From: an uncultured Clostridia bacterium | Lineage (GTDB): Bacteria > Bacillota > Clostridia > TANB77 > CAG-465 | Length of the DNA: 38,288 nt | Direction of reading: 5' to 3' | Assembly (NCBI GenBank): GCA_944386635.1 | Contig: CALXBV010000071.1 | Coordinates: forward strand, 1 to 38,288 | Part shown: positions 30,926-34,901 of the stretch, in pieces | How positions within the stretch are numbered: the first letter of the stretch is position 1 | Layout: every line of letters begins with the position of its first letter | Made by a program: the position numbers and the translations under genes | The notes under the pieces: generated by a model | The model's database searches: none | Told to the model about the DNA's origin: nothing | What the model saw: only the letters and a program-made list of their open reading frames with translations

Positions 30926-30953
30926 AAAAAAGTGGGGAATAGCCCCACTTTTT
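30926..30953 (-). terminator. Terminator after the cysteine desulfurase gene
   Basis: GTGGGG/CCCCAC with flanking A/T pairs gives a stem of at least 11 bp (30927-30937, 30943-30953) and a 5-nt loop. It is followed by a T-run on the minus strand and overlaps the stop codon at 30952. Confidence 0.9.
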
Positions 30954-32088
30954 AATTATTTTTTTTACTTCTAATAATATTTACACTTCTTTTTAAAATG
31001 TACACTATCTTATCCATTTCATACATTGTATTTTCTGAAGAAAGTGTTATTCTAAGAGCTGTGTTTTCCTGACCAATTGCTTTTAAAACATAAGATAATT
31101 CTTTAGTACTTGAATTACACGCACTTCCACCAGAGGCACATATTCCACTCATATCTAAAAATACCATAAGTTCTGAAGAATCAACTCCATCAATACTAAT
31201 ATTTAAATTACTATTTATCCTATAAGTATTATCTCCATTTATACTAATACCTTTTATTTCAGAATTTAGTCTATTATATAAATAATCTCTTAATGTTTTC
31301 TCTTTTTCATTGCAAGCATCTAAATTCTTAACAGTAATATCTAGAGCCTCTGCCATTCCTACAATTCCCGCAACGTTTTCAGTTCCAGGCCTAAGGCCTC
31401 TTTCTTGATGACCACCACAAAATAAATTATCTATACTTATATTATTTTTTAAATATAAAGCTCCTACTCCCTTTGGACCATTGAACTTATGTGCAGACAT
31501 TGTAAGAGCATCTATATTTGCTACATCTATTTTTAAATGTGGCATTGCTTGTACTGCATCAGTATGAAATATTATATTTTTTTCTTTTGCAATTTTTGCA
31601 ATTTCATCTATATTTTGTATAGTTCCAATTTCATTATTAACATACATAATTGATATTAATATAGTATCATTTCTTATTGCCTCTTTAACTTTTTTTACAT
31701 CAATTATACCATTTCTATCAGCTTTAATGTAAGTTATATCAAAACCTTCCATTTCAAGTTTCTTGCATGTATTTAAAACAGCTAAATGTTCAATATTAGA
31801 TGTTATAATATGCTTACCTTTATACATATACCTATGAGCTATACCTTGTATAGCAATATTATCTGATTCAGTACCAGATGCAGTAAAATATATTTCTTCA
31901 GGATCTGCATTTATACATTTAGCAATCTTTTTTCTGCTCTCCTCTATTGCCCTTTTTGATATTTTACCTAAATTATATGTCGTAGATGCATTACCATAAT
32001 TTTCTTTTAGATATGGTAGCATCTTATATAATACAGTTTCATTTAATTTTGTAGTAGAGCTATTATCCACATATATATATTCATTCAT
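30952..32088 (-). CDS. Cysteine desulfurase (NifS/IscS family)
   Basis: A 378-residue PLP enzyme releasing sulfur from cysteine as an enzyme persulfide. The N-terminus is YVDNSSTTKLNETVL. The PLP lysine is K201 in MSAHKFNGPKGVG, and the catalytic cysteine is C324 in ASGGSACNSST. The short active-site loop is of the IscS/NifS group. No IscU, ThiI or MnmA gene is adjacent, so the sulfur acceptor is open. The ATG at 32088 has AGGA about 10 nt upstream; a GTG three codons earlier overlaps that region. It follows the 616-residue protein by 68 nt with no terminator in between, so they may be cotranscribed. Confidence 0.92.
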   Translation of the reverse strand: MNEYIYVDNSSTTKLNETVLYKMLPYLKENYGNASTTYNLGKISKRAIEESRKKIAKCINADPEEIYFTASGTESDNIAIQGIAHRYMYKGKHIITSNIEHLAVLNTCKKLEMEGFDITYIKADRNGIIDVKKVKEAIRNDTILISIMYVNNEIGTIQNIDEIAKIAKEKNIIFHTDAVQAMPHLKIDVANIDALTMSAHKFNGPKGVGALYLKNNISIDNLFCGGHQERGLRPGTENVAGIVGMAEALDITVKNLDACNEKEKTLRDYLYNRLNSEIKGISINGDNTYRINSNLNISIDGVDSSELMVFLDMSGICASGGSACNSSTKELSYVLKAIGQENTALRITLSSENTMYEMDKIVYILKRSVNIIRSKKNN

Positions 32089-32156
32089 AAAAATCACATC
32101 CTATTTTATTTTATGAACTAATGCATATTTAGTGATATTAATATATAAATTTAATA

Positions 32157-34007
32157 TTAGTTAATATTTAAATCATATTGATCCTCTTCTATTTGTTTAA
32201 TATCTTGTGTTTTATATCTTTCTTTATCTATCATTACTATAGGTATGCCGAGTCTTTTACTCTCATCAATTTGTTCTTTTGTAATTTCTTTCATTGAAAC
32301 AAGATACGTTGGTCTCATTTCTTTATACTTACAATTATCTTCTTTTCCATCATAATCTTCATTTAATTCATTTTTTATATTTATCTCGCTAAAAGATGGA
32401 CTCGATTCTGCTATCTCATCAGGACTCATTATTCTATTTGCTCTATTGGTTAAGTTTTGATCATCCATTGTATAAGAGTCGCCCTCAAAAACGTTAATAA
32501 TTCTATTAGGATCTAATTTGTCATAACCATATAAATATGAAACTCTTCCATTTTCAAATACATTCAAATTTTTATTTGAAATAAGTGAATAACAAGACTC
32601 TGAACTATTTGTCTTTTCATGATACTCCATATTCAATGCTCTTACAAGCATATTAAAAGGCTTACCTTCTAATTTATATACTTTCAAATTATTCTTTTCA
32701 CTTGCTTCAACACAAAAATCTTCAACATTTTCTTCAGTTTTAAATAGGCTTTCACTTATTTCTTTATATGACATTTTCCTTAATATAGAAATATCATTAT
32801 AAAAGTCTGACATTATATCTTTATTCTTTAGATTCTCATACAGTTCGATTTTTTTATCATTTGAAATACTACTCAATTTTTTTATGATATTATAAAAATC
32901 AACCTTATTATTATCTAATACCTTTTTATCATCATCTAAATGATTATTATATCTTAGCATTTCATTTATATTAATATTTACGTTTTTCTTTGTATCATTA
33001 AATAAAGAATCAACTATTACTTCAGATAATTTTTCACTGGTTCTACTTTTTAAGTAATTTTCTAATTTTTCTTTATCCCCTATATTTTTTAATATATTAT
33101 ATTTTGTATCACCATCTAATATATAACTCTTATTATTTTCATATAGCTTATCTACTTGGTCTTGTGTTTTTATATCATAATCTTTAAATATTCCTTTTTC
33201 TTTATCATAAGAATTTATTATACCTTCTCTATACTTATCTACTTTTCTTTGAATAATACTTGAATAGTTATTTCTATATAAGACATTTATATTTCTTCTA
33301 AAATCAACAAAATTATCTACCTTTAGTTTTTCAAAGAAATAGTCTTGCCTCATTATATCATTGGGAAAATGTATACCATTTTTAGACATTTTTAAAATAT
33401 CAAAGTCTTTACACATAAATAGAGCTCTTGGATCATTATTTATAAATTCCTGCTGAATTTTTGAATTTGATAAAGATACAATTTCTTTTGTAATATCATA
33501 TTTTAAATCTTCTTTTAGCAATTTTTTCTTTGAATCATTATTAATTCCTCTAAAAAAATAATCTAAATTATCGTACTTTTCAGGCTCATTACTAATTTTA
33601 TCTATAATCTTTTTAATATCATCATAATTTGCATTCTCAACACATGAATAGCAATTATTTATATTCTTGAAAAAATAATCATAATAGCTATTATCATTGA
33701 CTACCTTTTTTAAGAGTTCTTCACTTCCATTATATTCAGATAAGGTAATTAAATATCTATATGCTGATTTCAAGCCTTTAATTCTATCAACATCAATATT
33801 TTTTATACATTCATCCGTACCAAAAGTTTCAACTACTTTTCTAATACAAGAATAAGAAAATCCATTTTCACTTAATTCTTTGTATAATTTTTCCTTAAAA
33901 TTAGCATTTGCAATTATACTTTTCTTGTTAATATTGTGATCAGACACATACTTACATATCTGCTCTATAGTAGCTTCACTATTTACAATATCATCTAAAT
34001 CATTCAT
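32157..34007 (-). CDS. Large uncharacterised protein with a distinct C-terminal domain
   Basis: A 616-residue acidic-and-lysine-rich protein without signal peptide or membrane helix. Residues about 1-430 are mostly helical and look like degenerate repeats (several Asn/Asp-rich helix-turn-helix units; a segment NFVDFRRNINVL followed by KVDKYREGIINSYDKEKG). Residues about 435-605 form a separate alpha/beta domain with SCYSLISNKNL, VSYLYGYDKLDPNRIINVF, RIMSPDEIAESSPSFSEI and a last strand LGIPIVMIDKERY. I have a memory of similar C-terminal domains in other unannotated gut Firmicutes proteins but cannot name a family. GGAGG is 8 nt before the ATG. It lies 20 nt after a 35-residue membrane peptide gene. 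Confidence 0.7.
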   Translation of the reverse strand: MNDLDDIVNSEATIEQICKYVSDHNINKKSIIANANFKEKLYKELSENGFSYSCIRKVVETFGTDECIKNIDVDRIKGLKSAYRYLITLSEYNGSEELLKKVVNDNSYYDYFFKNINNCYSCVENANYDDIKKIIDKISNEPEKYDNLDYFFRGINNDSKKKLLKEDLKYDITKEIVSLSNSKIQQEFINNDPRALFMCKDFDILKMSKNGIHFPNDIMRQDYFFEKLKVDNFVDFRRNINVLYRNNYSSIIQRKVDKYREGIINSYDKEKGIFKDYDIKTQDQVDKLYENNKSYILDGDTKYNILKNIGDKEKLENYLKSRTSEKLSEVIVDSLFNDTKKNVNININEMLRYNNHLDDDKKVLDNNKVDFYNIIKKLSSISNDKKIELYENLKNKDIMSDFYNDISILRKMSYKEISESLFKTEENVEDFCVEASEKNNLKVYKLEGKPFNMLVRALNMEYHEKTNSSESCYSLISNKNLNVFENGRVSYLYGYDKLDPNRIINVFEGDSYTMDDQNLTNRANRIMSPDEIAESSPSFSEINIKNELNEDYDGKEDNCKYKEMRPTYLVSMKEITKEQIDESKRLGIPIVMIDKERYKTQDIKQIEEDQYDLNIN

Positions 34008-34027: not shown

Positions 34028-34135
34028 CTAAATTAATATATTACTATTTATTAAAGCATAAGCTATTGCAATACCTATAGCTAATACTATTATAATTATA
34101 CATACCACCATTACAATTTTATTTTTCTTATCCAT
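34028..34135 (-). CDS. 35-residue single-helix membrane peptide
   Basis: A short frame with a very strong ribosome site (GAGGAGG, 34141-34147, 5 nt before the ATG). The product begins MDKKNK, has one continuous hydrophobic helix of about 24 residues (VMVVCIIIIVLAIG and on) and ends with a short Asn-containing tail. Its stop is 20 nt before the ATG of the 616-residue protein, so the two are likely translated from one message. It could be a membrane tether partner, a small regulatory peptide or a toxin-like hydrophobic peptide. The strong ribosome site, basic start and clean helix argue against chance. Confidence 0.65.
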   Translation of the reverse strand: MDKKNKIVMVVCIIIIVLAIGIAIAYALINSNILI

Positions 34136-34174: not shown

Positions 34175-34201
34175 GTAAAAAAAGTATAGCAAATGCTATA
34201 C
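34175..34201 (-). terminator. Terminator after the 34229 gene
   Basis: The stem GTATAGC/GCTATAC (34184-34190, 34195-34201) with a 4-nt loop. On the minus strand it is followed by TTTTTTTAC. It separates the 34229 gene from the peptide/616 operon. Confidence 0.85.
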
Positions 34202-34228
34202 CTTATTACAAATACTATACTTATTTTA

Positions 34229-34882
34229 TTACTCTATAACTTTAGAAGAATTATCTGACATAACTGCAATAGGCATCACAGTCATTCCCCCATTATTTCT
34301 TAAGAACACTGATTTTTGTAATCTTACTACATCTTTTAAATCATCTACATTATTAAGTGTAAAATCCCCTTTTATTATATTACTTCCTTCTATAAATCTT
34401 ATTGTACCATCCTCCATAAGAAATAGCACTTTACATGAGCTACCATATCCACAAATCATCACTTGAACCACATCTTCATCTAAAGTATCTGATTCGTACA
34501 CTATCGGATCTCCATTATAATAAAAGAAAGTCTCTGCATAATCATTTGTGCGAATAGTAAATTTATTATCATTTACAAAAACATCAATTCCGGACAAAGA
34601 ATCATATAACAGTGATGTTCTTCTGTATTGCTCTGTATTATATGACATACTTTCTGGATCGACTTTGGCAGGTAAAATAGATTCTTCCTTATTAGCTTCA
34701 TTTTTAAAGTCATTATATTCTTTTTCTAAATTATCATAATTTACTTTTTCTTGCTCTAATTGAGCAGCTAATTGTGTTATACTATCATCTCTTTTTAATA
34801 TTGTATTAATACAAAATCCACATGCAACAATCGCTATAATTAAAAGTAAAAATAATGTAAGTGCTGGTATATGTTTTCTCAT
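34229..34882 (-). CDS. Membrane-anchored coiled-coil protein of unknown function
   Basis: A 217-residue protein with one N-terminal membrane helix (about residues 6-27), a coiled coil (about 33-62, ITQLAAQLEQEKVNYDNLEKE) and a beta-rich outer domain of about 140 residues. The outer domain has short repeated strands (KVLFLMEDGTIRFI) that resemble blades of a small propeller or a copper-amine-like fold; I recognise no family. ATG at 34882 is preceded by AGAGGTG at 7 nt; the frame extends three codons to a GTG inside that site. It is monocistronic, between its promoter (34902-34930) and the terminator at 34175-34201. Confidence 0.65.
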   Translation of the reverse strand: MRKHIPALTLFLLLIIAIVACGFCINTILKRDDSITQLAAQLEQEKVNYDNLEKEYNDFKNEANKEESILPAKVDPESMSYNTEQYRRTSLLYDSLSGIDVFVNDNKFTIRTNDYAETFFYYNGDPIVYESDTLDEDVVQVMICGYGSSCKVLFLMEDGTIRFIEGSNIIKGDFTLNNVDDLKDVVRLQKSVFLRNNGGMTVMPIAVMSDNSSKVIE

Positions 34883-34901
34883 TATATTCACCTCTAATTT
34901 T

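What the first reader, a model, noticed from the sequence alone, without database searches (positions are those of the whole stretch)
32157..34007. 616-residue protein with a distinct, unnamed C-terminal domain
A helical N-terminal two thirds and a well-defined alpha/beta end domain (about residues 435-605) that matches no family I can name. It may be cotranscribed with a membrane peptide and a cysteine desulfurase (no terminator in the 68-nt gap). This is the largest gene in the window without a function.
Basis: inference. Interest (0 to 1): 0.6.

Follow-up and report, generated by a model that had tools for sequence, protein, structure and literature searches.

The report
Solenoid protein with divergent ADP-ribosyltransferase-like end
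A gut Clostridia protein that matches no catalogued family has a long helical front part and an end domain whose predicted shape most resembles enzymes that attach ADP-ribose to targets; that end domain is a shuffled module in many large unknown proteins of the same bacterial order.

Summary
Window 32157-34007 (-) encodes a 616-aa protein with a helical part (residues 1-420) and a compact alpha/beta domain (about 430-600). No Pfam, NCBIfam, PHROGs, PADLOC or PDB sequence match exists. Eight orthologues lie in one subclade of the genus. They evolve under purifying selection, and their tree agrees with that of the neighbouring cysteine desulfurase. The end domain alone recurs in 95 of 385 genomes of the order, fused to unrelated proteins of roughly 270-3300 aa.

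A confident AlphaFold2 model of it (pLDDT 90, 57 sequences) matches only ADP-ribosyltransferases (ARTs) among 650 aligned PDB chains: DarT at Z 4.7-4.8 and OspC3 at Z 2.2. Order and position of conserved residues fit an ART core: R456 on strand 1, S474 on strand 2, E541 (motif Y[N/S]E) opening strand 5. E541 is conserved in 54 of 57 sequences. Z is modest, profile comparison with DarT is negative, and no activity is known. I therefore call it a probable divergent ART-like domain on an alpha-solenoid (HEAT/ARM-like), confidence about 0.5. The nifS neighbour recurs in five orthologues. The membrane peptide belongs to the older housekeeping locus into which this gene was inserted.

The parts
32157..34007 (-). 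616-aa protein, whole gene
   Evidence: ATG ORF; eight orthologues, purifying selection
32748..34007 (-). N-terminal part, residues 1-420: helical, alpha-solenoid (HEAT/ARM-like) in the model, found only in the orthologues
   Evidence: AF2 model; best matches are PP2A A subunit, API5, PUF, armadillo proteins, Z up to 7.5, not diagnostic; NTD profile finds only orthologues
32205..32720 (-). C-terminal ART-like domain, about residues 430-601
   Evidence: AF2 pLDDT 89.6, pTM 0.86; all six Z>=2 structural matches are ADP-ribosyltransferases
32640..32642 (-). R456 on strand 1, candidate first residue of an R-S-E-like triad
   Evidence: invariant in 8 orthologues; R/H in 26 of 57 superfamily members, otherwise T/S/K/N/C; in strand 452-458
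32586..32588 (-). S474 on strand 2 (CYSLIS)
   Evidence: S/T in 53 of 57; in strand 470-477
32478..32480 (-). D510, conserved acidic residue after strand 4
   Evidence: 55 of 57
32385..32387 (-). E541 (FSE; family Y[N/S]E), candidate catalytic glutamate at the front edge of strand 5
   Evidence: E in 54 of 57, Q in 3; first residue of strand 541-545
34028..34135 (-). 35-aa membrane peptide, shortened member of a 74-88-aa family of this locus
34229..34891 (-). 220-aa TM/coiled-coil protein, most constant upstream neighbour
   Evidence: no Pfam family over its cut-off
30952..32097 (-). NifS-like cysteine desulfurase, downstream neighbour
   Evidence: Aminotran_5 E=2e-82; adjacent in 5 of 8 orthologous loci
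34181..34204 (-). terminator-like hairpin separating the upstream gene from the peptide-target-nifS unit

Best explanation
The protein is a soluble cytosolic two-domain protein. Residues 1-420 form an alpha-solenoid that most likely binds a partner or substrate (inferred). Residues about 430-600 form a highly divergent ADP-ribosyltransferase-superfamily domain (fold supported by a predicted structure, not proven). In this orthologue group the residues in triad positions are R456 (strand 1), S474 (strand 2) and E541 (start of strand 5), an R-S-E-like arrangement with a PARP-like YNE/YSE glutamate. The most likely mechanism is that the domain binds NAD+ and E541 polarises it, so that ADP-ribose goes to a target presented by the solenoid, or to water (NAD glycohydrolase). 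This mechanism is inferred. The gene entered the ileS-TM peptide-coiled coil-nifS-mraZ locus early in one subclade, was inherited vertically, and was lost or moved several times. It belongs to a larger pool of multidomain proteins in this order that carry the same domain. A regulatory or conflict role is likelier than a role in cysteine desulfuration.
For: Model of the domain: pLDDT 89.6, pTM 0.86, from 57 diverse sequences. VIA-align: of 650 chains only six reach Z 2 and all are ARTs: DarT2 (7omy, 7omx, 7yk3), DarT1 (8baq), Z 4.7-4.8, 121-140 residues aligned across nearly the whole domain, and OspC3, Z 2.2. The strand order places R456, S474 and E541 on strands 1, 2 and 5, as the ART superfamily requires (motif table in PMC7955679, where PARP1 has YNE at the front edge of strand 5). 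E541 is kept in 54/57 and D510 in 55/57 sequences, and all four residues are invariant in the orthologues. Purifying selection. No TM segment (max KD19 0.25). Orthologue tree agrees with the nifS tree. Domain shuffled among unrelated long proteins.
Against: Z 4.8 is modest and the tool warns that Z under 8 may be a common arrangement. Foldseek found no match with E below 1. Profile comparison with a DarT alignment is no better than shuffled columns. No Pfam ART family appears among the 25 families listed for the 57 domains. The strand-1 residue is T, S, K, N or C in 31 of 57 relatives, so many may be inactive or work differently. No macrodomain or other ADP-ribose eraser was recognised beside the gene.
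Confidence: 0.5

Rival explanations
1. ART-like fold without ART catalysis: a pseudoenzyme or binding module that uses the old nucleotide cleft to bind a ligand or peptide, with the solenoid as scaffold.
For: Strand-1 R/H is replaced by T/S/K/N/C in 31 of 57 relatives; three relatives have Q for E541.
Against: E541 and D510 are the most conserved polar residues of the whole superfamily (54/57, 55/57) and R456 is invariant in the window's own orthologues.
Confidence: 0.22
2. A distinct alpha/beta fold not related to ARTs; the DarT similarity is a chance resemblance of small split beta-sheets.
For: Foldseek E not below 1; Z only 4.8; hhalign at background.
Against: Every chain above Z 2 is an ART, including DarT and the separate OspC3 family; conserved residues fall on the expected strands in the expected order.
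Confidence: 0.23
3. Accessory protein of the cysteine desulfurase (Fe-S or tRNA thiolation), made in one operon with it.
For: Directly upstream of nifS in five orthologous loci, no terminator between them in the window.
Against: Six genomes of the genus have the coiled-coil gene and nifS with no such gene between them; in G004 the orthologue lies elsewhere, before a miaB-like gene, while its nifS locus lacks it.
Confidence: 0.05

Closest known systems
DarT (PF14487/DUF4433), DNA ADP-ribosyltransferase of the DarTG toxin-antitoxin system
   Same: Predicted fold aligns over almost the whole domain (Z 4.7-4.8); same order of strand-1 residue, strand-2 motif, glutamate strand, and a closing strand-helix-strand unit
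   Different: No sequence similarity; lacks the VPFYFxPRS motif with R51; fused to a solenoid; no DarG or macrodomain neighbour seen
PARP / ARTD catalytic domains
   Same: Glutamate motif YNE at the front edge of strand 5, as listed for PARP1 in PMC7955679
   Different: No PF00644 match seen; strand 1 carries R here and no HGx motif; the strand-2 motif is CYS, not YFA
ARTC / R-S-E mono-ADP-ribosyltransferases
   Same: R on strand 1, S on strand 2, E on strand 5 in the window's orthologue group
   Different: No ExE pair before the glutamate; no sequence match; the wider superfamily varies at strand 1
HEAT/ARM/PUF alpha-solenoids
   Same: Series of helical hairpins in the model of residues 1-260
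   Different: Z up to 7.5 only, typical of any helical repeat; no repeat family matches by sequence

Membership tests
ADP-ribosyltransferase (ART) superfamily | Split beta-sheet core of six strands flanked by helices | tested here: inconclusive
   AF2 model with the right strand order; only ARTs at Z>=2, but Z is at most 4.8
ADP-ribosyltransferase (ART) superfamily | Three active-site residues on strands 1, 2 and 5 (R-S-E or H-Y-[EDQ]) | tested here: inconclusive
   R456, S474, E541 on strands 1, 2, 5 and invariant in orthologues; strand-1 residue varies in the wider family; geometry not checked
ADP-ribosyltransferase (ART) superfamily | NAD+ binding and ADP-ribosyl transfer or hydrolysis | not testable with these tools
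   needs biochemistry
DarT (PF14487) | Match to the family profile | tested here: not met
   no match by hmmscan or in the own genome; hhalign at background
DarT (PF14487) | Catalytic arginine in VPFYF.PRS after strand 1 | tested here: not met
   motif invariant in eight DarT sequences, not seen in the aligned domains
DarT (PF14487) | Adjacent DarG macrodomain antitoxin | tested here: not met
   no macrodomain gene recognised in the orthologous neighbourhoods; most of the annotated DarT records have one next door
PARP (PF00644) | Family profile match and H-Y-E triad | tested here: not met
   no Pfam match of the window protein nor among the families listed for the 57 domains; R, not H, on strand 1 in the window protein
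HEAT/ARM repeat proteins | Recognisable repeat sequence or clear structural match | tested here: inconclusive
   no Pfam match; structural Z up to 7.5, below the tool's helical-repeat background

The most novel reading that the evidence does not exclude
The C-terminal domain founds a new, order-specific ART clade that serves as a shuffled module of a large, unrecognised system in uncultured gut Clostridia. In that system many big polymorphic proteins are coded next to a small partner with a basic amphipathic tail, and the window's solenoid-ART protein is a vertically inherited chromosomal offshoot.
Probability: 0.25. Interest if true: 0.75.

Novelty: new variant of a known kind. Interest (0 to 1): 0.5.

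Why it matters
If it is right, a family carried by a quarter of the sampled genomes of a common gut lineage gains a first testable activity (NAD+-dependent modification) and named residues to mutate. It would also add an ART branch that sequence libraries cannot see, and point to a two-gene system of unknown role present in most genomes of that order.

Tried and rejected
Sequence libraries (Pfam, NCBIfam, PHROGs, PADLOC, PDB sequences) gave nothing. Plasmid and phage collections gave no relative, nor did viral contigs. Foldseek against PDB and viral models gave no significant match; the best viral one is A0A2Z5XBI3 at E 0.0095. Profile comparison with DarT, alone and as a family alignment, was at the level of shuffled controls. 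Polo-box and streptococcal hemagglutinin hits are noise. TM or secreted protein: rejected, no hydrophobic segment. Traces of the gene at the empty sites in G003, G013, G012, G017, G026: none by tblastn. Literature searches found no description of this family.

Full report
OBSERVATION. The gene at 32157-34007 (-) is an ATG-initiated ORF of 616 aa. The host genome is a 1.46-Mb, 77%-complete assembly. Named records of its relatives are uncultured Clostridia MAGs, whose isolate names ('Lapin') suggest rabbit gut for some (inference). Orthologues occur in 8 of 28 genomes of the genus: G000, G015, G025, G004, G006, G007, G020, G010. Identity to the window protein is 41-66% and the alignment runs the whole length; the copies of G006 and G025 are cut by contig ends. 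The gene is under purifying selection: dN/dS 0.22 (N-terminal part) and 0.22 (C-terminal domain) against G015, and 0.15 and 0.08 for the pair G007/G020. So it is a real gene and not a chance ORF.

NO KNOWN FAMILY BY SEQUENCE. hmmscan found nothing credible in Pfam (best E 0.49), NCBIfam, PHROGs or PADLOC, and phmmer nothing in PDB sequences. Profiles of the C-terminal domain did not find PDB relatives either, and scanning 57 domain members singly gave only scattered weak Pfam hits, none of those listed to an ART family.

TWO PARTS. With only the eight orthologues, AlphaFold2 gives a full-length model (pLDDT 85.5, pTM 0.70). It is almost wholly helical from residue 4 to 420, then an alpha/beta domain follows. 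The N-terminal part resembles helical repeat proteins (PP2A scaffold, API5, PUF, armadillo) at Z up to 7.5, below what the tool considers diagnostic for helical repeats. A profile of residues 1-420 finds only the orthologues among all ORFs held. The C-terminal domain is the mobile part. A profile of it found 21 of 385 genomes of the order, and after adding distant members 95 of 385, but only 8 of 393 genomes drawn from the class. There it sits in open frames of roughly 240 to 3340 aa, usually followed by further sequence.

FOLD OF THE C-TERMINAL DOMAIN. From 57 domain sequences (A4) AlphaFold2 built residues 404-616 with pLDDT 89.6 and pTM 0.86. Foldseek alone gave no significant PDB match. 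VIA-align 2 on Foldseek's candidates gave six chains at Z 2 or more out of 650. Three are DarT2 (7omy, 7omx, 7yk3; Z 4.8; 121-128 aligned; rmsd 3.5-4.0), one is DarT1 (8baq; Z 4.7; 140 aligned) and two are OspC3 (Z 2.2). All six are ADP-ribosyltransferases or ART-fold ADP-riboxanases. The values are modest, and the tool notes that Z under 8 can be a common arrangement; what speaks for a true relation is that nothing else reached Z 2. The alignment spans nearly all of DarT (model 13-195 on chain 4-209 of 7omy).

RESIDUES. ARTs carry three active-site residues on strands 1, 2 and 5: R-S-E in one clade, H-Y-[EDQ] in another. PMC7955679 tabulates the strand-5 motif as X-X-E 'at front edge of beta-strand 5', with YNE for PARP1. 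In the model the strands after the leading edge strand are 452-458, 470-477, 491-495, 503-507, 541-545, 568-571, 590-593. R456 lies in strand 1, S474 in strand 2 and E541 is the first residue of strand 5. In the orthologues R456, S474, D510 and E541 are invariant. Across 57 diverse domains E541 is E in 54 and Q in 3, the preceding residues are mostly Y or H and N or S (hence Y[N/S]E), D510 is D in 55, and S474 is S/T in 53. Position 456 is H 15, R 11, T 15, S 7, K 6, N 2, C 1. So about half of the superfamily has an ART-like first residue and the rest does not, which leaves room for inactive or altered members. I could not superpose coordinates, so the triad is assigned by topology only.

TEST OF MEMBERSHIP. 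It is not a DarT. There is no PF14487 match, hhalign against an alignment of eight DarT proteins is no better than against shuffled columns, the invariant VPFYF.PRS motif of DarT is absent, and no macrodomain neighbour was recognised. DarT itself needs R51 and E160 (PMC9967889). It is not a catalogued PARP or ARTC either. The supported statement is 'ART-like fold, divergent, probably catalytic', not membership in a named family.

NEIGHBOURS. The locus order in the genus is ileS - small membrane protein (74-88 aa) - 220-250-aa TM/coiled-coil protein - nifS - mraZ - rsmH - ftsL - PBP, with some reordering and losses. Six genomes (G003, G004, G012, G013, G017, G026) have the coiled-coil gene and nifS at this locus with no target gene between them. 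In G000, G015, G007, G020 and G010 the target gene lies between the coiled-coil gene and nifS; in G025 it follows the coiled-coil gene at a contig end; in G004 and G006 it lies elsewhere. In G007, G020 and G010 only 6-21 nt separate it from the coiled-coil gene, so co-transcription with that gene is likely there. In the window a terminator-like hairpin (34204-34181) separates the two, and the peptide, target and nifS share the stretch up to the terminator at 30953-30927. The 35-aa peptide resembles the N-terminus of the 74-88-aa membrane protein (MDKKSKIWLVVCIVIIVLAIGI...), so it is a remnant or short form of a locus gene, not a partner specific to the target. The target and nifS trees agree in the groups that are resolved, which fits vertical descent with several losses and at least one move.

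FUNCTION. My best reading is an intracellular NAD+-using ART-like enzyme whose solenoid chooses the target. The chain of inference is: fold (predicted, supported), active-site positions (supported by topology and conservation), catalysis (inferred), target and role (unknown; regulation or conflict favoured because the same domain is shuffled among large variable proteins). A role in cysteine desulfuration is unlikely because nifS occurs at the same locus without it.

WIDER SYSTEM, IN PASSING. In 26 of 53 non-orthologous loci (my count) the ART-like protein has on its own strand, within 400 nt, a 90-200-aa partner, mostly 140-160 aa. The partner has a conserved helical N-terminal region and a basic amphipathic C-terminal helix (KWYKKIFKFIKKIFKK-like). 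That partner family has no consistent Pfam match, occurs in 320 of 385 genomes of the order, and often has several copies per genome. It also stands beside many large proteins without the ART-like domain, several of which end in a shared tail (EQEIGKATI...), found in four of the ART-like proteins too. The window protein has no such partner beside it; the own genome holds one shortened partner gene. I did not resolve what this system does.

VERDICT. A real, conserved and uncatalogued protein. The end domain is probably a new, very divergent branch of the ART superfamily. Interesting because it is abundant in one order and testable at named residues; uncertain because the fold link rests on a predicted model with modest structural scores.

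Noticed in passing
L123:7098-7565 and 25 other loci; A5; 320 of 385 genomes of the order: A small helical partner protein with a basic amphipathic C-terminal helix is coded next to about half of the ART-like-domain proteins and next to many other large proteins; no consistent Pfam match, often several copies per genome.
   Followed up: partly
L154, L155, L156, L158, L161, L165; L050, L101, L103, L104: Large unrelated proteins near the partner end in a shared tail (EQEIGKATI.T.T..K..A..R...DE), also seen in four ART-like proteins.
   Followed up: no
L163:4709-5155: A 148-aa protein weakly matching Tox-ART-HYD1 (E 0.005, below cut-off) directly follows a partner gene, a second ART-type protein in that setting.
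   Followed up: no
L186:2970-3470; L014:12014-13222: The stretch between ileS and nifS also receives other genes: a Fic-like reading frame (by eye, HPFxEGNTRT motif) upstream of nifS in G025, and an AAA_14/DUF4143 ATPase in G015. It looks like an insertion hotspot.
   Followed up: no
window 34028-34135: The 35-aa membrane peptide resembles the N-terminus of a 74-88-aa membrane protein conserved at this locus in other genomes of the genus.
   Followed up: yes
L054, L056, L058: Some ART-like genes in relatives are split into two ORFs by a stop or frame change, suggesting decay in some lineages.
   Followed up: no
L060:2002-2805, L107:4926-5729, L063: Three relatives have Q in place of the candidate catalytic glutamate; two of them (267 aa) are little more than the domain itself.
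   Followed up: no
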